45,250 nucleotides of DNA from Oxalobacteraceae bacterium OM1. GTDB lineage: Bacteria; Pseudomonadota; Gammaproteobacteria; Burkholderiales; Burkholderiaceae_D. This document shows positions 25,082 to 36,164 of the stretch, one piece after another. The stretch spans positions 1-45,250 of the forward strand of contig SPQI01000228.1 in the NCBI GenBank assembly GCA_004570315.1, written 5' to 3'. The notes under the pieces are model-generated. The model was not told where the DNA came from, did not search any database, and saw only the letters and a list, made by a program, of their open reading frames with translations. Position 1 is the stretch's first letter, and every line of letters begins with the position of its first letter. A program made the position numbers and the translations under genes.

Positions 25082-26986
<1,905 letters not shown>

Positions 26987-27063: not shown

Positions 27064-27095
27064 CGCGGTCGGGCGGCGCCCTGCCGCCGCAGCGT

Positions 27096-27167
27096 CTCGC
27101 CGTAGTTCAATGGATAGAACGAGTGCCTCCTAAGCGCTAGATACAGGTTCGATTCCTGTCGGCGGGG
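27096..27167 (+). tRNA. tRNA-Arg (CCU)
   Basis: A full cloverleaf of 72 bases: acceptor CTCGCCG/CGGCGGG, D arm GTTC/GAAC, anticodon loop CUCCUAA with anticodon CCU, 4-base variable loop, T arm ACAGG/CCTGT and discriminator G. The gene is followed by CCC, so the terminal CCA is not encoded. The complementary bases on both sides would allow a longer acceptor helix. It is the probable integration target of the island that begins here. Confidence 0.93.
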
Positions 27168-27955
27168 CCCAAAATATGCGGCTTTCCGGCCATTTTGTGA
27201 CACGATTGTGACAACAGACCGGTCACTTACCCGGTAATGCGGCTGGCTCAGTTATGTGCACTTGTGCCTGTTCACGTGTCCAAGCTCTGCTGCAGCTGCA
27301 TTTCTGTTTCGCCCTGAGACTTTTGGCCGCGTTACTCCAACGCCAAGGCCACGCTTCTCAGCATCGTGGCAGTCTCCGTTCATGCCACCAAGGTATATCT
27401 CCGTTCAGCACCTAACGCGGCTGCACGCGATGGCAAGGCATCACATGCTGAAAATCAACAAGCGCGCCATCACAAACACTCGTACGGCATCGCCATACTC
27501 CAGTTCACTGGACAGGCGACGTTGTGCTCCGCCGTACGTAGGCGCTGCTCCATGGATACGGCGCAGGGAAACCGTACAGGGTCATACGGCAGCTGCCTGC
27601 CTCTCTTAAGAGGGAAGCAAATTGCCGGGAGCAAACAGGTAGTTGCGGTGAAGCGGTAGCCCAGAGAACCCAAACAACCAACGTACTGAATTCTTCCCCT
27701 AGGACTTGGGTAAGAACCGTATTGCCCAGAATGCCACGCGCCCCTACGACTTTGCTCAGCGATGCGGAAATATGCGTGTTCGTTGACGAATATCAACGAC
27801 AGGGTGACATTTGTCATCTTTTCACCTACCGAGGGAGTGGCTAGCATCCGTGTCACGCGCTGCATGCCGCCCCGCGTCATCGAAGCCTCACAGACCCGAC
27901 TGGCCACTGGCACGCGCAGCGTCCTTCGTTCTATAACACGATCGGGAGAGCCGTA
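27168..27955. other. Gene-free stretch with TTGTGACA repeats (island left end)
   Basis: No convincing gene lies in these 788 bases. TTGTGACA occurs twice, 11 bases apart (27195-27202 and 27206-27213), followed by GGTCAC (27221-27226). Further right are GTTGA-N6-TCAAC (27782-27797) and the perfect 12-bp palindrome TGACATTTGTCA (27805-27816), which could be recombinase or repressor sites in front of the excisionase genes. Confidence 0.45.
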
Positions 27956-28234
27956 ATGGCAGTCCGCCGCTGCAAGGATGTCATGTGTGAGAAGTTCCGC
28001 GCCGCGCATTACAGCGTCATACAGCAGAAGTCCTACAACGATCCTACTTATGTTGAGGTTGGCAACAAGCTGGGCGGGCCCGATTCGGTCTTCACGCCCT
28101 ATCGGAAGCGGCTTTCGCCACCTATGCCGACGCTGCAAATGGCTGGGGTGGAACCGCTGATCGGGAAAAGCACGCTGCAGCGGAGCGCGGCCGACCTGAG
28201 CACCAACGCAGCTCGCGTGGGAAGGCAGCTGTGA
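27956..28234 (+). CDS. Hypothetical protein upstream of the excisionase-like gene
   Basis: This 92-residue frame begins MAVRRCKDVMCEKFR after a GGGAGAG ribosome binding site and ends in a GTGA overlap with the next gene, an arrangement expected for a real, coupled gene. Third codon positions are GC-rich, as in neighbouring genes. I do not recognise the protein; it has no signal peptide or membrane segment and is moderately basic. It may be a small regulatory protein of the integration module, but that rests only on position. Confidence 0.45.
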   Translation: MAVRRCKDVMCEKFRAAHYSVIQQKSYNDPTYVEVGNKLGGPDSVFTPYRKRLSPPMPTLQMAGVEPLIGKSTLQRSAADLSTNAARVGRQL

Positions 28235-28482
28235 CGCCCATTTTCCACCCCGTCATCTGGGTATTGGTCAACAAAGCAGCCGAGCTGACCGGCCGCTCCC
28301 AAAAATCGCTGAACGGTCTTGTGCATGCCGGCCTGCTTGTGGAAGGCAAGCATTGGAAGTGGTCCGCGGACGGACGTCGGTATTTCAACCTGCAGGAACT
28401 GGACAACTGGGTGGCGCACAGCAAGGGCAAAGCTTCGAGCCGCGGGCGGCGCGAGAACGTCTCAAAACCAAATCCGACCTGA
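28231..28482 (+). CDS. Putative excisionase / recombination directionality factor
   Basis: The 83-residue protein has a predicted winged helix-turn-helix, VNKAAELTGRSQKSLNGLV, followed by HWKWSADGRRYFNLQELDNW, a pattern I associate with phage and island excisionases in the MerR-like class. Such proteins bend the attachment sites and drive the integrase towards excision. The start is GTG at 28231 with GGGAAGG 5 bases upstream, overlapping the previous stop. The integrase gene follows after 150 bases that hold repeated motifs. Confidence 0.7.
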   Translation: MTPIFHPVIWVLVNKAAELTGRSQKSLNGLVHAGLLVEGKHWKWSADGRRYFNLQELDNWVAHSKGKASSRGRRENVSKPNPT

Positions 28483-28524
28483 ACCTTGCTCGGCCATGCA
28501 GGCCCAGCAGGATTCAACGAGCAA

Positions 28525-28576
28525 GCCACAGCCGGGCGACGGCCGTAACGCTCGGCTGTGACCGCTCGGCTGTGAC
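28525..28576. repeat. Tandem 14-bp repeat plus inverted copy upstream of the integrase
   Basis: CGCTCGGCTGTGAC occurs twice in direct tandem (28549-28562 and 28563-28576). An inverted copy matching 12 of 14 bases, GCCACAGCCGGGCG, lies at 28525-28538. The three sites precede the integrase start by about 60-110 bases and may be binding sites for integrase or excisionase. Confidence 0.75.
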
Positions 28577-28632
28577 GTGCGCTGCACAGGCATCCAGAAG
28601 CGCAATGCGCCATTTCGACATAGGGAGAAAAG

Positions 28633-29805
28633 ATGGGCGACAACAACGTTTCTAGAGGTGTCTATCCGCATGGGGCATCGCTGTATGTGGACTTCACCTG
28701 GGAAGGCCAGCGGCATCGAGAGCGCCTCGGCCTTCGCCCAACCGCGGCGAACTGGAAAGCGGCGATTGACATCCGGGAGACGATCGTTCGTGCCATCCGG
28801 CTCGGCAAGTTCACGCTTACGACGTTTGTCGAGCACTTCCCAAATTCGAAATTTCTCAAGAAGTGTGGCGGACGACCGGTTGCCAACACTGTGGAAGCCG
28901 CTGTGGAAACGTACCTGATCATTGCCGGCTTAAAGCTGGCCGCAAGCACCGTATCGGAATACCGCAATACGCTACGTCGGTTCCTGCTCCCGGCATTTGG
29001 CTTCCGCCACATTGACACGGTCACCTACGAGGAACTTGCCTTACACCTTGCCGGGTTGCGGATCGAAAACGCCAAAACGTTTAACAATCTCTTGACACCC
29101 GTGCGAAAGGTCTGGGCACATGCTGTCGATACCAAGTTAGTCACGGATAATATCGCGCGCAAAATCGATTTTCGCGCCATCGAGGACGCCAGCCCGGATC
29201 CGTTGGAACTTGAACAGATCGATCGTGTACTGAACCACCTCCTACAATTTGACGCGCAGTGGCTCAACTACTTCGAATTCGCGATTTTCTCGGGCTTGCG
29301 ACCCTCCGAGTTGATTGCGCTGAAGTGGACCCATATTGACTTCCGACGCAAGAAGGTCTCGGTCAAAGGGGCACGGGTCCGCGGCCGCGATAAGGAAACG
29401 AAGTCCAAACGTGTCCGCCATGTCGACTTGCAGACCCGCGCGCTGGCTGCCCTTACACGACAAAAGATGTATACATTCGAAACGAGCGAATACGTCTTCT
29501 GCAATCCGGCCACCGGCCAGCGCTTGCTCAGCACCAGTACCGCGCTCGAGAAGGCGTGGAAGCCAGCGCTGGCGGCAGCAGGTGTCCCTTATCGTCCAGC
29601 CAGGCAGACACGGCACACGTTTGCGACGATGTGCCTGCATGCCGGCATGATTCCTCTGTACGTGGCACAGCAGATGGGACATTCCGATCCCAATCTATTT
29701 TTTAAGGTGTATGCCAAATGGATCGATGGCGATGCGAATCGGCGGGAGATCGAGAAGCTCGATTCCCTGTTTCTTACCATACATGAGCGCCGGCATGGCG
29801 ACTAA
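28633..29805 (+). CDS. int: Tyrosine-type site-specific integrase
   Basis: The 390-residue recombinase has an N-terminal arm-binding domain (about 8-45, YPHGASLYVDFTWEGQRHRE), a SAM-like core-binding domain (about 85-175) and a catalytic domain. Catalytic residues seen are R223 (SGLRPSEL), a Lys in the beta-hairpin near 255-259, R327 (RQTRHTFAT), H350 (QQMGHSDP) and the nucleophile Y360 (FFKVYAKW). The histidine that normally starts the HxxR motif is Arg324 here, a tolerated variant in some families. Its position beside tRNA-Arg indicates integration into that gene. Confidence 0.93.
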   Translation: MGDNNVSRGVYPHGASLYVDFTWEGQRHRERLGLRPTAANWKAAIDIRETIVRAIRLGKFTLTTFVEHFPNSKFLKKCGGRPVANTVEAAVETYLIIAGLKLAASTVSEYRNTLRRFLLPAFGFRHIDTVTYEELALHLAGLRIENAKTFNNLLTPVRKVWAHAVDTKLVTDNIARKIDFRAIEDASPDPLELEQIDRVLNHLLQFDAQWLNYFEFAIFSGLRPSELIALKWTHIDFRRKKVSVKGARVRGRDKETKSKRVRHVDLQTRALAALTRQKMYTFETSEYVFCNPATGQRLLSTSTALEKAWKPALAAAGVPYRPARQTRHTFATMCLHAGMIPLYVAQQMGHSDPNLFFKVYAKWIDGDANRREIEKLDSLFLTIHERRHGD

Positions 29806-30552
29806 AGCATCATTAGCTGGGCCCATGACTGGCCTGTAGTCATGCGCCTCTCCTTTGACAACAATATCGCACCGCTCGGTGCAAAGCTAACACCGGTTAG
29901 CGCCATCTCGCCGCCTGGCGAGAGCGCGCCGATTTTGCCGTGCGCCTGTTCAGTTTTCGTGAGCACGTTCGTTAATCATTATTTCGGGGCGCCATAGGGC
30001 AGCCACGCTAAACCGAGCGTATTTTGTGGGCATACCACCCGTCAGCGTGCGGCACTGCAGACCGCAGGCGCGCACGGACCTGCTATAACCCTTGTCAATG
30101 CCGGACTGGGTCATTGAACAAAAGGCTGCCTGCGGCAGACAAGCGCATCTTTGCCCTACCCGACAAATGTGCGTGGTCCGGCATGCCTCAATGTACATGG
30201 TTGTCGACCGAGTGAATGGCGCATTGTTTCTGCCAGGATCGTGACATCAGGGCACCGCGTGGCGCTGCCTTGGCGCCGACCGGTGCTCCATCCGCACCAA
30301 ACGGTGCGCTCCTAGCTCCACTTGCGCCGCCTATGCACCCGTGCCGCAAACAAGATCGCCGAGAATATCCGCGCCCTATCGATGACGCACACTGCCTGTG
30401 ACGCTACACGCGTAGCGCCGCCGCACATGGCAACGTGCTTCTTGGCGGCCGTCGCCGAAACTGCCGGGCTGACCTAGACCTATCCGCATCGCGGACCTTT
30501 CCGCCTGGGGCCGCCTACTTGCAGATTCGGCGTGACGGTCGGTTAGTGCGAA
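29806..30552. other. Gene-free stretch downstream of the integrase
   Basis: These 747 bases hold no gene I can support. Three tandem stem-loops lie near the left end (listed separately). Around 30,250-30,330 the sequence is rich in GGTGC/GCACC segments that could fold. Confidence 0.4.
29869..29923. repeat. Three consecutive stem-loops
   Basis: GCACC-GCTC-GGTGC (29869-29882), GCTAAC-ACCG-GTTAGC (29886-29901) and TCTCGCC-GCCT-GGCGAGA (29906-29923) are three perfect hairpins, each with a 4-base loop, separated by 3-4 bases. No T-run follows directly. They could form a structured RNA or mark a recombination or replication site. Confidence 0.6.
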
Positions 30553-31062
30553 TCAGACGTCAAACCCAAGCAGCCACGACACGATCCGACGCTCCACCCG
30601 GTTCAGGAAGGTGATTTGTTTCCCGATATGCAGCCAGCGGTACTCGTTCTGCGAAAGCTTTTCGCGCACGACCACCTGCTTTTCCACCACCTTGGCCTGC
30701 TTTTCGGCCACCTCCGCATCATGCTTTGCCAGCCAATCGGCGAATCCGCCCTCCTCCTTGAAAGCCGCTGCGTATTCCACGGGCACCTTGGCAAGAACGA
30801 TGCCGTTCGCCGCATCCTTCGCTCGCAACTTGGCTGTCCGTTTTGCGTCTGACGAGCGCGATTTGCCTTTCCCAGGATCCGGGATGTACGCGGACATCCG
30901 GATAAGGCCGTGTTCCCGCGCCAGGTGCGCCTCCTCGTCGGCCGGTTGTTCATCGGGCGGCACGCCGGCGCCATCCTTTTTCTTTGGCTGGTCATTCGGT
31001 GGCACGCCGGTGCCGTCGTCCTTTGGCTGCTCGCCGTCCTCATCCTTTCCATTCATCGTCAT
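30553..31062 (-). CDS. Hypothetical protein with disordered acidic N-terminus
   Basis: The 169-residue protein is not recognised. Residues 1-45 are acidic and disordered and contain a near-duplicate unit (TGVPPNDQPKKKDG, then AGVPPDEQPADEE). The middle (about 55-100) is Lys/Arg-rich, followed by a helical stretch with coiled-coil character (AKHDAEVAEKQAKVVEKQ) and a hydrophobic C-terminus (RRIVSWLLGFDV). There is no signal peptide. A GGGAG site precedes the ATG, and a perfect 26-bp palindrome lies 32 bases upstream, implying tight regulation. It has no close neighbour on its strand. Confidence 0.7.
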   Translation of the reverse strand: MTMNGKDEDGEQPKDDGTGVPPNDQPKKKDGAGVPPDEQPADEEAHLAREHGLIRMSAYIPDPGKGKSRSSDAKRTAKLRAKDAANGIVLAKVPVEYAAAFKEEGGFADWLAKHDAEVAEKQAKVVEKQVVVREKLSQNEYRWLHIGKQITFLNRVERRIVSWLLGFDV

Positions 31063-31093
31063 CCGTTACGCTCCCTATGCCAGGTGCTTGGAC

Positions 31094-31119
31094 CCGTGAC
31101 TGTCACGTGACAGTCACGG
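31094..31119. promoter_or_regulatory. Perfect 26-bp palindrome, probable operator
   Basis: The left arm is CCGTGACTGTCAC and the right arm its exact complement, GTGACAGTCACGG. Each arm itself contains the dyad GTGAC-W-GTCAC, giving four GTGAC half-sites in 24 bases. It lies just upstream of the 169-residue protein gene and far from any plus-strand gene. Confidence 0.7.
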
Positions 31120-31829
31120 TTGAAGGTGTTGAACGCCGGGGCACGCCGTCCCGATCCCACGATACCCTGCACGACTGCAACGCCACGTAGCGGCGCTTCT
31201 GCTTTCCGCGACGGCATTGGCTGCTCGACAGCGACACGGCGGTCCAATGCCGCATCCCTTTCATCGTAACGAGCACCAATCAACTGGTGGAGCATGTGGG
31301 AGCCTTGCCAGCCATCCCCAAAACGAAACGGCCCCGCGGCGTCGATCCACCGACACAAAACAAGACATCTGTGGTAACGGCGCACCGCGATATGGTTCGC
31401 ATCGCCCTCCGTCGCTTGGCTCGGCATTAGGTTCGAGCCGATGGCGCAACGCCCGCAATCCTGTGGAACGCGTCGGGTCGGCCAGCCGTGCGCCGCTCCC
31501 ACGGTGGACTACCAGTAGGCCTGTGCACTGCGCGCGGATGCTTGCGCCCAAGGCCGGCCACTTCGGCCATCCAGAGCAGTAATTCGCCCCTCTACTCACA
31601 GGTGATAAACGGACGGTTCAAGGTTTTTCATCCCAGCCGCCCCGCTACACTTTTTCGTACGGGCGCGCACTGCCGAAGCCACCTGCATAACCGCAAATGC
31701 GCTTTGCGCATGACCTGCGTTTCGCCTGCGCGGCATTAACAGAGAAAAGAGGGATCAGCGAGATGGGCAAGTGGCGGGTTCACGCACGCGGTCGTTTTCT
31801 TGGCGGCCGACTTTTTGACGGGAGAGGGT
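31120..31829. other. Gene-free stretch between two island genes
   Basis: No frame here has a credible start, ribosome binding site or recognisable product. It should contain the promoter of the recombinase-like gene at 31830, but none is clear. Confidence 0.4.
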
Positions 31830-32897
31830 ATGACGACAGAGCAGACCGGGCAGCCGCTGCCCACGCGCACCACCGAGACAGAACAGCTGTACCACGACAT
31901 TTTGCGGCGCTTTCAACAACTGGCCCAGGAAGACGTGTACGCCGGTCGGGCGGATACCGGCGCACCGGAAGCGATACGGCTCGCAGTGCATTTCCGGCAG
32001 CACGAAGACGGGTGGGCCGCGGCCACGGCACGCCTGTACCGGGCGGCGCTGGTGCATGGCCTCCAGCGCCATTATCCGCCTGGCGACGCGGAGGAAGCCC
32101 TGGCACTGCTGTATTACCAAGATGAAAGTGAAGAAGTTCGCATGGTCCGCAAGCAGGCACAGCGCGAGAAGCGACGACGGCAAAAGCGGCTGCATCCTCG
32201 CTGCAGCCAGCAAAAAGCCAAGGCGTTCTCGCAGGAGCGCCTCCTACGGCTGCTGGAAGAGCTGGTCAAGTCGCACAGCAAGTGGGCCCGGCCAAGCTGC
32301 GAGTGGCTGCTGGCCGGCGTCTGGACCGGCCTGCGCCCCGCCGAGTGGGGTGGCGCGACCCTCATGGCGGTGGAGGGGCGTCCTGCGTTGCTGGTGAAGA
32401 ATGCGAAAGCCACCAATGGACGTGCCCACGGCACGCATCGCACGCTGTTGCTCGACCTCGATGAGGAGCAACTGAAAGTGGTGGCACGCCACCTCGAGCG
32501 AGTGCATGGCTTCGTTCAGGACGGCAGCTATGCCACGCTGTACACGGGCTGCCGCAAGCTGATTTGCGCCGCCGCCGACCGGGTGTTTCCCAAGCGGGTC
32601 AAACATCCGACCTTGTACACCGCGCGCCACATGTTCTCCGCGGTCGCCAAATCGATGTTCGGGAAGGCAGAAGTGGCCGCGTTGATGGGACATGCGTCGA
32701 TCAAGACGGCCGGTACCCACTATGCCCGGCGTTGCACCGCAAGCGGCGAGAGCCGGGTACGCCCGCATGCCGCGGACGTCCATGCCGTTGACCAGCGCAA
32801 CCCACCGCATTTCCCCGCCACCAGTGAACCTGGGCTCGATGCCACGCCGGCGCGCTCATCCCCCCTTGTGCGCCCCAGCGCCGATTCCGACGCCTAG
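31830..32897 (+). CDS. Second tyrosine recombinase-like protein
   Basis: The 355-residue protein starts MTTEQTGQPL after a strong GGGAGAGGG site. Its C-terminal half has the tyrosine recombinase residues: R169 (TGLRPAEW), K190 or K194, R266 (YTARHMF, with Tyr in place of the first His), H288 (ALMGHASIKTAG) and Y298 (THYARR). The N-terminal half is helical with a basic stretch (KQAQREKRRRQKRLH, 109-123) and lacks the arm-binding domain of normal integrases. After Y298 comes a Pro/Ala-rich tail of about 55 residues. It is only distantly like the island integrase; substrate unknown. Confidence 0.7.
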   Translation: MTTEQTGQPLPTRTTETEQLYHDILRRFQQLAQEDVYAGRADTGAPEAIRLAVHFRQHEDGWAAATARLYRAALVHGLQRHYPPGDAEEALALLYYQDESEEVRMVRKQAQREKRRRQKRLHPRCSQQKAKAFSQERLLRLLEELVKSHSKWARPSCEWLLAGVWTGLRPAEWGGATLMAVEGRPALLVKNAKATNGRAHGTHRTLLLDLDEEQLKVVARHLERVHGFVQDGSYATLYTGCRKLICAAADRVFPKRVKHPTLYTARHMFSAVAKSMFGKAEVAALMGHASIKTAGTHYARRCTASGESRVRPHAADVHAVDQRNPPHFPATSEPGLDATPARSSPLVRPSADSDA

Positions 32898-33150
32898 CGT
32901 TTGCGATTGACTGCGCGCTACGGGCGGCAACGGTGCCGCTCGTTCAGCCGCATGGAGATATCGCGCTCCGCTTCTCAGCCCTAAGGTTCCGGCCGCGCCC
33001 CCTAGGGACATGGCGCCGACGATGTTTGCGTGCTCGTGGCGCTCCCGGCACTTGCAAGACATGCCGGCCAAGCTATTGTTGCCGCTGGCCTGGAACACCC
33101 CACGAAGCAGCCTGCTATTCGCAATCCTAGGCCTAGGACAGTCGGTCAGT
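32898..33150. other. Gene-free gap
   Basis: No feature is seen in these 253 bases, which separate the plus-strand recombinase-like gene from the end of the minus-strand ATPase unit. Confidence 0.4.
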
Positions 33151-33354
33151 TCATTGCCGCACACACTGCGCGCTGACAATCTGGCGACGCGCAGTCCCGC
33201 CCAACGGGTTCGTGCGGTTAACATCGTCGATCGCCTGCAGCACTTTGATCCGCGCGGCGTCACAGCGGGCCGCACTGGCGAAAGCCGCCATGGAAACCAC
33301 CGGTCCCCAGGCGCTCCCGCCCAGCACCGTGATCACGATCAGCACGTGTGTCAT
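33151..33354 (-). CDS. Small exported protein downstream of the Lon-like ATPase
   Basis: The 67-residue frame begins MTHVLIVITVLGGSAWG, a signal-peptide-like or membrane-anchor segment, followed by FASAARCDAARIKVLQAI. The pattern 'hydrophobic start, F-x-S-x-x-x-C-x-x-A' occurs in many tiny exported proteins of phages and plasmids whose function is unknown. It lies 46 bases after the ATPase gene on the same strand. The start site is uncertain because only a weak GGAAAA precedes it. Confidence 0.4.
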   Translation of the reverse strand: MTHVLIVITVLGGSAWGPVVSMAAFASAARCDAARIKVLQAIDDVNRTNPLGGTARRQIVSAQCVRQ

Positions 33355-33400
33355 GGTCGCGGTTTTCCAACACCGTAAGTTGGCGACATGGCGGAGCCCG

Positions 33401-34516
33401 CTACACGAACCCGATGCGTCGTGAGGTGCTGAGTGCCTCCAGTCCGCATGCCCGGATATCGTCCGCACCGATCTGCGTGCGACATTCGTAGACCACCCGG
33501 CCCACCGCTTCGCGCAAAGCCTTGCGCATGACCCGCGGCGCCGCCGTGCTCAACACGTCGAGCGCGTCGTCGGTCAGTACCAGGCTCGCCGTCGCCTGTG
33601 GCAGTTCGCGGCACAAGCGCCGCCACAGTTCCCGGGCAATGGTACGGCACTGCTCGCGCGTCGGGTTCGGGACCTCAATCACCTTCATGCGGCTGCGAAT
33701 CGCGGCGGGCAAGGTGTCGTCGTTCCCGCAAGCGATAAAGATGACGGCCGACGCATCCATGATTAGCCAAGGATGGGCGAGATCCGAGAACATGCGTGCG
33801 CTCTCCGGATCCAGCAAACTGTAGAGGGGCGAAATCGGCTCGTACTCCCTGGACCCGGCGCAGCGGCTCAGTTCCTCGAGCACCACAATGGGGGAGGCAT
33901 ACGGCCCCATAATGAGTCGCTCGAACAGCAGGCCGGGCTTGGAATTGCCCCAGAAGTCGGACACGCCTACCAGGTCCCCACTGGCTTGGGCTACTTCCAT
34001 ACGCAACGTCAGCGGGGCCGTGAAGGACGACGACGATGAGGGGGACAACGTGCCGCTAAGCAGCAGGCGCGCCACATCCTGCATGATTAGTGATTTCCCG
34101 ATGCCGGGTTCCCCTAATAAAAAAACCGGCTCGGGATGCGGACTTTTGCCCTCCCGTTCCGCAATTGCATAGGTCGTGCGCAAGAACGCGATGTAGTCCC
34201 TGAAATTGGGATACGCCTGCTCCAGCAGGTCAAGCCGGATGCGCCAGTCGGCCGGCACCTGCGGGAGCTCGCGCCAGCCGCCAACCTTGCGCAGGTGCTC
34301 AATGATCGCCATTGCCGCCGTGCGATGATCGCGATCCGACAGCGGTCTGCCGAGACGAATGGCTGCCGCTTCTACGTCCTCCCGCTTGACGACCTCGAGA
34401 TAGCGATGGCGCTGCGCCCGCGGCGGCACTGGCCACAGAGCCGACTGCGCCCCTCCACCCTGTGTGCCGTCCGCTGCGTCGTCTTCAAGCCGTTCCGTCC
34501 CTTCTGGCGCATGCAT
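33401..34516 (-). CDS. Lon-like AAA+ ATPase without protease domain
   Basis: The 371-residue protein has one AAA+ module. Walker A is GEPGIGKS (135-142), Walker B IVVLEE (210-215, Glu where Asp is usual), sensor 1 Asn in FIACGND (N265) and an arginine finger in AAIRSRMKVIEV. The stretch LYSLLDPESARMFSD followed by a sensor 1 and RSRMKVIEV closely parallels the Lon ATPase (LLEVLDPEQNNTFSD in Lon). Lon's N-terminal substrate domain and Ser-Lys protease domain are absent. The ATG at 34516 has GGGAGG upstream; the gene follows a small acidic ORF by 24 bases. Function unknown. Confidence 0.85.
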   Translation of the reverse strand: MHAPEGTERLEDDAADGTQGGGAQSALWPVPPRAQRHRYLEVVKREDVEAAAIRLGRPLSDRDHRTAAMAIIEHLRKVGGWRELPQVPADWRIRLDLLEQAYPNFRDYIAFLRTTYAIAEREGKSPHPEPVFLLGEPGIGKSLIMQDVARLLLSGTLSPSSSSSFTAPLTLRMEVAQASGDLVGVSDFWGNSKPGLLFERLIMGPYASPIVVLEELSRCAGSREYEPISPLYSLLDPESARMFSDLAHPWLIMDASAVIFIACGNDDTLPAAIRSRMKVIEVPNPTREQCRTIARELWRRLCRELPQATASLVLTDDALDVLSTAAPRVMRKALREAVGRVVYECRTQIGADDIRACGLEALSTSRRIGFV

Positions 34517-34540
34517 GTCCTCGCCCTCCCCGTCGTCGCG

Positions 34541-34747
34541 TCAGTCCGCTTCCTCGTCGTCCGAGTCCTGCCCGGCAGACCCGGGTTCAGAGAATTCGAA
34601 AGGCAGGTCATCCTGCATGGACGCGCGCGGCGCGGCAGGCAATTTGTGGGGTACGCGGACATACCACGGAACGACATCGCTATCATTCGGGCAGGGACTC
34701 GGCCCTGCGGTCGAAGAGATCGGATAGATCGGATAGAAGAGTGTCAT
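34541..34747 (-). CDS. Small acidic protein upstream of the Lon-like ATPase
   Basis: The 68-residue frame starts MTLFYPIYPISSTAG, with AGGA 5 bases before the ATG, and ends in an acidic tail (FEFSEPGSAGQDSDDEEAD). It has no recognised domain. It is the first gene of the apparent unit small protein - ATPase - small exported protein, and only 24 bases separate it from the ATPase gene. Its coding status rests on ribosome binding site, spacing and the acidic C-terminus. Confidence 0.45.
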   Translation of the reverse strand: MTLFYPIYPISSTAGPSPCPNDSDVVPWYVRVPHKLPAAPRASMQDDLPFEFSEPGSAGQDSDDEEAD

Positions 34748-34891
34748 GGGCATCCTACATGCAGACGTGATGAGTTTCGAAACCACAACCATTAAAACGC
34801 AGGCTATACGCTTGCATTAATTCGTCAAGGTGATAGACATAAGGGAAGCGGTCCTTGCGCCGTCCCGCCCCATCTGCATTAGGAGAGATTC

Positions 34892-35587
34892 ATGACAGCA
34901 CACCTACCCTGCTCTACGCGACTGGTCCTGTTCCTGGATATCGACGGGGTGCTACATTCCGAAGACGCGCAACTAGCGGGCATCGACTACGTGACCGAAG
35001 CGCTACGGGTGGGCATGGTGCGCGGTCAGGTCAACCCGACGGCGTTAGGTCTGCTGTGTCCACACCGCCAGCAACTGCTGGCCGACATCCTGGCGCGCCA
35101 CGAGCACGTTGACGTCGTACTGTCGAGTAGCTGGAGGCATTGGGAAGGGTTTCATTACCTCGATCCAAACGATATGCGCGATGAGCTGTTTGAGCGGCGT
35201 CATGTGCAGAGTCTGGATTGGATCAAGCGCTGGATGATTCCGGAACTCGCGCACCGACTCATCGGCAAGACGCCGCCTAACGGTAGCCGGCTTCAGCAGG
35301 TACGGATTGCCGCCGACGCACTCTCTCGCAACGGCTATTCGCCCTACTGGGTAGCGCTGGATGACCAGGCCTCGCACTTTCCTGGCATTGCACCGTTCTA
35401 CCAGGAGAATGGCCATGAGCGGGTGAACAATCCGAACGTTGCGCCCGAAGAGATCGTCGTGCTGGTCGATGGACGCTTTGGCTTAAGGGAAGTGTCGGCG
35501 CTGGCGCTTGATCGGGCACTCGCCCATGCCAGCCAAGCGGCCAACCAGCATATCCCGCCGCTGTCTGCCATTGGAGCAGGCGGGTAG
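34892..35587 (+). CDS. HAD-superfamily protein, RNA-repair-associated (HAD_SAK) type
   Basis: The 231-residue protein begins after an AGGAGA site. HAD motif I is LFLDIDGVLHS (D16, D18), motif II is VVLSSSWRHW (S78-S80), and a later acidic pair occurs in WVALDDQASHF. The DGVLH and SSSWR pair is typical of the HAD domain found in 'Swiss Army knife' RNA-repair proteins, where it is thought to act as a phosphatase on RNA ends or nucleotides. Here it stands alone. It is transcribed divergently from the Lon-like ATPase unit with 144 bases between them. Confidence 0.82.
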   Translation: MTAHLPCSTRLVLFLDIDGVLHSEDAQLAGIDYVTEALRVGMVRGQVNPTALGLLCPHRQQLLADILARHEHVDVVLSSSWRHWEGFHYLDPNDMRDELFERRHVQSLDWIKRWMIPELAHRLIGKTPPNGSRLQQVRIAADALSRNGYSPYWVALDDQASHFPGIAPFYQENGHERVNNPNVAPEEIVVLVDGRFGLREVSALALDRALAHASQAANQHIPPLSAIGAGG

Positions 35588-36164
35588 CGGATGCGATAAG
35601 CGTACGGAGAACGGTATGAATCGGAGTCGGAGCGAACAAAGCGGTCGACGCTTCGGCGAAGGCAACCGCGTGGAACGTTGAAGGTATGCTGCGGCACTTC
35701 TGGCTAGCTTAACGTAGCGCGCCTATTGACCGGAGTTTCTCGTGTAACTCATCTATCCGGCGGCTGATACGGTTAAGTCCGCGGTGCGTGGCCTTTCGTC
35801 CATGCTCGGTCCATGGCTGCCCAGTGAAAACCAGCGATGACCGTTTTGCGGAATTCATGCGTCAATCAGCCTCTGCGCATGGAGGTCGCCTTTTGCAAAC
35901 ACCTCCAAGGCGGAGTGGTAAAGGGGCGTTGCCTTCTTCGCCGAAGCGTCCGCCCGCGATTCCGACCTCGCTGAGAGGCTTCCCGGCGACAATGCAAAAC
36001 AGCCGCAATTCGCCTCCCGCGTGAGCTTACGCCCTGCACTGCCTACCGCGCGCACGGGGACACTGTTCAGCGGATTTGTTTCGGGCCGGAAAACGGCGGT
36101 CTGCGCGGCTGGCGCCCGATCCGCGGCATGGTTGACTCAACTCAGGGAAACGCCCCCGCGCCGA
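35588..36164. other. Gene-free stretch at the right end of the island
   Basis: Short frames on both strands lack ribosome binding sites and recognisable products. I see no direct repeat of the tRNA-Arg 3' end that would mark the island border. Confidence 0.4.

What the first reader, a model, noticed from the sequence alone, without database searches (positions are those of the whole stretch)
31094..31119. Perfect 26-bp palindrome built of two GTGAC-W-GTCAC dyads
A 13-bp perfect inverted repeat with no spacer, each half itself a near palindrome, sits 32 bases upstream of the 169-residue protein gene. Such a nested dyad suits cooperative binding of two dimers, or a partition or replication protein. 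No such regulator is recognisable nearby.
Basis: seen in the sequence. Interest (0 to 1): 0.55.

Follow-up and report, generated by a model that had tools for sequence, protein, structure and literature searches.

The report
Conserved palindrome before orphan island gene
A perfect 26-letter DNA palindrome lies just before an unnamed gene in a mobile island of a Noviherbaspirillum bacterium, and a near-identical one lies before that gene's distant cousin in a second species, so it is very probably a control site of that gene, most likely bound by the gene's own product; the kind of device is ordinary, the gene is unnamed.

Summary
Window 31094-31119 is a perfect 26-bp palindrome of two GTGAC-W-GTCAC dyads, the longest in the window and single-copy in the genome. 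The 169-residue gene has one detectable relative, in Noviherbaspirillum aridicola (38% identity overall, 42-46% in the local matches). There, 22 nt before the ATG, lies a perfect 28-bp palindrome of the same two dyads with the same CC/GG ends. No other window ORF of 80 aa or more has a relative in the 40 kb around that locus, and the flanking DNA is not alike. In 392 family genomes the gene occurs in two and the double dyad in the same two, at the same spot.

Best explanation: an operator of the gene, most likely bound by its own product (basic C-terminal part, uncertain fold), giving autorepression. Binding and repression are inferred, not shown. A leader RNA hairpin and a host regulator remain rivals; partition site, terminator and recombination site fit poorly. 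The case rests on two loci in one genus, and loose double dyads also occur elsewhere without this gene. Kind: new member of a known kind. Interest: modest.

The parts
31094..31119 (.). Perfect 26-bp palindrome, proposed operator, of two abutting 11-bp dyads with CC/GG ends
   Evidence: 28-bp counterpart at L003:1412-1439 = G081:C4:65821-65848
31096..31106 (.). Dyad GTGACTGTCAC, distal to the gene start is 31107-31117; this one is proximal
31107..31117 (.). Dyad GTGACAGTCAC, distal to the gene start
30553..31062 (-). 169-residue gene of unknown family; candidate for the protein that binds the palindrome
   Evidence: No Pfam family at E<=10; homologue in N. aridicola; codon positions 46/62/40% identical over 138 codons
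28633..29805 (+). Tyrosine integrase with Arm-DNA-bind_2 domain: island context
27095..27171 (+). tRNA-Arg(CCT), at whose 3' end the island begins
   Evidence: backbone similarity in the genus stops there

Best explanation
The palindrome is an operator in the control region of the 169-residue island gene. Each 11-bp dyad (GTGACWGTCAC) is taken to bind one dimer of a small DNA-binding protein, most likely the gene's own product, and the occupied site hinders transcription of the gene (negative autoregulation). Shown: the palindrome, a matching palindrome before the only detectable homologue, co-occurrence of gene and motif, and no other shared gene around the two loci at the cut-off used. Inferred: that the product binds, that it binds as dimers, and that binding represses.
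For: Perfect 28-bp palindrome of the same dyads and ends 22 nt before the ATG of the homologue. Upstream DNA otherwise not alike: best 13-mer 13 of 13 inside, 10 of 13 outside the palindromes in 300 bp; no blastn match of the window to 40 kb around the homologue. The 169-aa gene is the only window ORF of 80 aa or more with a tblastn match there at E<=1e-5. Gene at E<=0.001 in 2 of 392 family genomes, double dyad in 2 of 392: the same two, the same place; the two draws appear to be the same set. Among 120 genome-contig loci with the loose motif, the one that encodes a homologue is also the only one of 143 matches with CC/GG ends. The dyad symmetry inside each arm is kept, which suits protein units. 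C-terminal 110 residues basic, pI 9.69 and 11.27.
Against: Two loci in one genus only; class search found 1 of 369 genomes, its own. The whole window protein has pI 6.45. No DNA-binding family matches, the structure models are poor (mean pLDDT 60.9 and 57.5) and the strand of the first is missing in the second. No sigma-70-like promoter was found near either site, so an overlap with a promoter is not shown. Spacing between dyads differs by 2 bp. Loose double dyads occur without the gene: 18 of 18 viral contigs and 119 of 120 genome-contig loci.
Confidence: 0.6

Rival explanations
1. Operator bound by a different protein, such as a chromosomal regulator of Noviherbaspirillum or another island protein not conserved in sequence.
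For: The two genomes share a chromosome's worth of genes that were not compared. The N. aridicola island has a helix-turn-helix gene nearby, 24.5 bits, just below Pfam's cut-off of 27.
Against: The other 13 of 15 genus genomes lack both gene and motif, so a host regulator would have no such site there. No second shared gene within 40 kb at E<=1e-5.
Confidence: 0.2
2. A hairpin in the leader RNA of the gene (stability or translation control) and not a protein-DNA site.
For: Both leaders fold into the hairpin: -28.8 kcal/mol, z -3.02 (76 nt) and -4.14 (61 nt) for the window, -25 kcal/mol, z -3.20 for the homologue. The central W pair is swapped T-A to A-T with pairing kept.
Against: Any perfect palindrome would fold so. 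A hairpin needs pairing only, yet the letters and the inner dyads are kept. Transcript starts are unknown.
Confidence: 0.12
3. Partition (parS-like), recombination or other cis element of the island that is not mainly about this gene.
For: Both sites lie in tRNA-integrase islands. The window's centre CACGTG has the base make-up and central CG described for Burkholderiales parS sites (passages of PMC5450999).
Against: The homologous site has GC at its centre and 8 of 16 matches to parS. It is about 4 kb from the tRNA end, single-copy and has no 6-8 bp crossover spacer between the dyads. Its position just before the start codon of the one shared gene is unexplained.
Confidence: 0.06
4. Chance palindrome or terminator.
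For: Palindromic double dyads arise independently in unrelated genomes.
Against: 0.0014 expected by composition, and a near-identical copy stands before the homologue. The terminator scans do not call it.
Confidence: 0.02

Closest known systems
Autoregulated operators of small dimeric repressors, for example ribbon-helix-helix repressors and antitoxins (class recalled, not from a call)
   Same: Palindromic site directly before the gene of a small, partly basic protein on a mobile element; tandem dyads suit two dimers.
   Different: No such family is recognised in the protein, no toxin partner was identified, and binding is untested.
Bsr and chromosomal parS sites of Burkholderiales (PMC5450999, passages)
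   Same: Perfect palindrome; in the window the centre is CACGTG.
   Different: parS are 16 bp with a T-rich 5' end and central CG; the homologous site has no central CG; 10 and 8 of 16 matches to chromosomal parS; no parA/parB found in the scanned ORFs.
Same motif inside phage replisome-organiser genes (PF09681)
   Same: The 22-bp motif itself, in 3 genes checked by Pfam.
   Different: There it is coding and reads HVTVT; here it lies before an unrelated gene.

Membership tests
Operator of the downstream gene | Palindrome kept before the start of homologous genes | tested here: met
   1 of 1 homologue found has it, 22 nt before the ATG
Operator of the downstream gene | Bound by the gene product, changing expression | not testable with these tools
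   Needs gel shift and reporter assays
Ribbon-helix-helix repressor | Sequence match to a ribbon-helix-helix family | tested here: inconclusive
   0 Pfam families at E<=10 for both proteins; families of two members are easily missed
Ribbon-helix-helix repressor | Strand-helix-helix core that dimerises | tested here: inconclusive
   H71-85, E89-92, H95-104, H107-165 in the window model, pTM 0.25; no strand in the homologue's model; fold searches uninformative
ParB-parS partition site | 16-bp palindrome with central CG, T-rich 5' end | tested here: not met
   Homologous site has central GC; 10 and 8 of 16 matches
ParB-parS partition site | parA and parB genes nearby | tested here: inconclusive
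   None among window ORFs scanned with Pfam, but not all ORFs were scanned
Intrinsic terminator | G+C-rich hairpin followed by a run of T | tested here: not met
   Scans list other sites, not this one
Tyrosine-recombinase crossover or att site | Inverted arms around a 6-8 bp crossover region at an island end | tested here: not met
   Dyads abut (0 bp) or are 2 bp apart; about 4 kb inside the island; single copy. The defining feature is recalled. Other ways of dividing the arms were not tested.

The most novel reading that the evidence does not exclude
The 169-residue protein founds a new DNA-binding family whose nested GTGACWGTCAC site is a dedicated control element of Noviherbaspirillum integrase islands, governing island behaviour (excision, copy state or mobilisation) and not merely the level of its own mRNA.
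Probability: 0.15. Interest if true: 0.45.

Novelty: new member of a known kind. Interest (0 to 1): 0.3.

Why it matters
It gives an unnamed island gene a testable function (DNA-binding regulator) and a defined target, from a motif that was kept while the DNA around it diverged beyond recognition. If the protein binds the site, a small DNA-binding family and its site would be defined together. The device itself, a gene with a palindromic operator, is common.

Tried and rejected
More homologues. The 169-aa protein gave no relative in genome contigs, plasmids or phages; the N. aridicola protein none in plasmids; the two-row alignment and the N. aridicola protein alone none in viral contigs. Genus: 2 of 15. 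Family: 2 of 294 and 2 of 392 at E<=0.001, with three more at E 0.001-0.01. Those three were dropped: the matched stretches are alternative or antisense frames over what look, by eye only, like a transposase, a malic-enzyme or phosphotransacetylase-like and an AMP-ligase-like gene; the loci hold no GTGACNGTCAC within 1 substitution. Class: 1 of 369, its own.

Motif counts. An order-wide scan found the window's site only, 1 of 399 genomes; its pattern has a fixed 0-bp gap, could not have found the homologous site, and G081 is not in that draw.

Other. Fold searches were uninformative; the rows cover mainly the long helix, and no ribbon-helix-helix chain was listed, which excludes nothing. PDB sequence search: best E 0.44, a fatty acid-binding protein. 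Rfam at E<=1 on 28000-36000: one match at E 0.23, 20.7 bits against a gathering score of 49. PADLOC: E 0.0085 to a RecX-named model, not pursued. No copy of 12 nt or more of the tRNA end elsewhere in the window, so the island's right end was not found. Papers: 'GTGACTGTCAC' gave 10, listing only, none with a title on bacterial regulators; ribbon-helix-helix terms gave 5, listing only; 'Noviherbaspirillum' with 'genomic island' gave 1, listing only; parS gave a listing, and of PMC5450999 I saw passages.

Full report
OBSERVATION. The 26 bases at 31094-31119 are a perfect palindrome of two GTGAC-W-GTCAC dyads. It is the longest perfect palindrome in the window (next 20 bp); 0.0014 are expected by composition and 0 of 120 simulated windows reached 26 bp. 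The core with up to 3 mismatches occurs once in the draft genome. The single dyad occurs at two other places there, both inside long open frames. The gap to the ATG of the 169-aa gene is 31 bases.

CONTEXT. The same-genus genome G081 is Noviherbaspirillum aridicola NCCP-691, contig NZ_BPMK01000004.1: the same sequence was returned with that title as L132. So the window's genus is Noviherbaspirillum. A tRNA-Arg(CCT) lies at 27095-27171. In 10 of 14 other genus genomes contiguous similarity reaches the 3' end of that tRNA (27169 in nine, 27173 in one); in the other 4 it stops earlier in the loci held; in none of the 14 does it go on. An integrase with an Arm-DNA-bind_2 domain follows at 28633-29805. 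So the palindrome lies in an integrase island that begins at the tRNA; the right end was not found.

The 169-aa protein matches 2 of 294 family genomes, its own and G081 (42% over 92 aa). In G081 the gene lies some 5 kb past tRNA-Gly, tRNA-Gly and tRNA-Cys genes, beyond two integrases and a helix-turn-helix gene that scores just below Pfam's cut-off; a weak relaxase match, also below cut-off, lies downstream. Its upstream DNA holds CCGTGACAGTCACGCGTGACTGTCACGG, a perfect 28-bp palindrome, 22 nt before the ATG. The dyads are the same, the central W of each is flipped, and 2 bp are added between them, so the dyad centres are 13 and not 11 bp apart. Outside the palindromes the upstream regions are not alike: best 13-mer 13 of 13 inside, 10 of 13 outside, in 300 bp. 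blastn of the window against the 40 kb around the homologue gives nothing, and of all window ORFs of 80 aa or more only the 169-aa gene has a tblastn match there at E<=1e-5. Over 138 aligned codons the three positions are 46%, 62% and 40% identical, as expected of a conserved protein with diverged silent sites.

CO-OCCURRENCE. In two searches of 392 family genomes each, which appear to be the same draw, the gene at E<=0.001 is in 2 of 392 and the double dyad with 0-6 bp between is in 2 of 392: the same two genomes, the same place. By chance alone the same pair would be drawn once in about 77,000; the two genomes share a genus, so this number is only a guide. Three weaker hits were examined and dropped as alternative or antisense frames of other genes. 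None of the 18 viral contigs with the pattern encodes one. So the loose motif is not specific to this gene, while its full form was seen only there, in an incomplete census.

MECHANISM. Kept letters, kept symmetry inside each arm and a kept place just before the start codon point to a protein-binding operator. Since no other gene is shared nearby and 13 of 15 genus genomes lack both gene and motif, the gene's own product is the most economical binder. Its C-terminal 110 residues are basic (pI 9.69 and 11.27), although the whole window protein is not (pI 6.45). The window protein's model has the order helix-strand-helix-helix at 71-165, which could hold a ribbon-helix-helix core, but confidence is low, the homologue's model lacks the strand, and no family or fold search supports it. 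I claim an operator bound by the own product at 0.6 and leave the fold open. The unequal spacing argues against two dimers in one rigid geometry. No sigma-70-like promoter was called near either site, so how binding would repress is not shown.

RIVALS. A leader hairpin forms in both RNAs, as it would for any perfect palindrome, and does not explain the kept inner dyads. A parS site is disfavoured: 10 and 8 of 16 matches, and no central CG in the homologous site. A terminator is not called. A recombination site is disfavoured by position, spacing and single copy. A host or unrelated island regulator remains possible.

VERDICT. Real, conserved and in all likelihood functional: an operator of a rare, unnamed island gene. 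Two loci in one genus carry the case, and no binding has been shown.

Noticed in passing
L005:3774-4727, L007:3806-4630, L014:1897-2748 and other viral contigs: The same double dyad lies inside phage genes: in 15 of 19 matches (18 contigs) the longest open frame reads HVTVT there, and in 9 of 19 it goes on as HVTVTxxHA[TI] (L005/L012 and L008/L018 share sequence). Three of three scanned are replisome organisers, PF09681. It may be a replication origin site inside the initiator gene (inference).
   Followed up: partly
L023-L142, for example L067, L037, L061: Double dyads with a 4-6 bp gap recur in Omnitrophota and Anaerolineae records, several per contig in one MAG (JACQQR01); 101 of 143 matches have a gap of 4-6 bp. 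They look like dispersed repeats.
   Followed up: no
L064:3662-3687, L064:4477-4502, L141:3201-3226, L141:3807-3832: A perfect 26-bp palindrome TGGTGACAGTCACGTGACTGTCACCA occurs four times in two contigs of one alphaproteobacterial MAG.
   Followed up: no
window 31800-32897 (+): 365-aa ORF with a weak tyrosine-recombinase-like match (phrog_1, E 1.8e-4; no Pfam family), beside the true integrase of the island.
   Followed up: no
window 33401-34516 (-) and 34892-35587 (+): Divergent pair: an AAA ATPase with weak Lon and TRIP13 similarity and a HAD_SAK_2 protein; possibly island cargo.
   Followed up: no
window 30944-31017: Imperfect 32-nt direct repeat with 42-nt spacing (78% identity) in the 5' part of the 169-aa gene, giving a low-complexity N-terminal stretch absent from the homologue.
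   Followed up: no
window 26005-26024: Second longest perfect palindrome in the window, GCTTGTCGACGTCGACAAGC, inside the ABC-F ATPase ORF 25082-26986.
   Followed up: no
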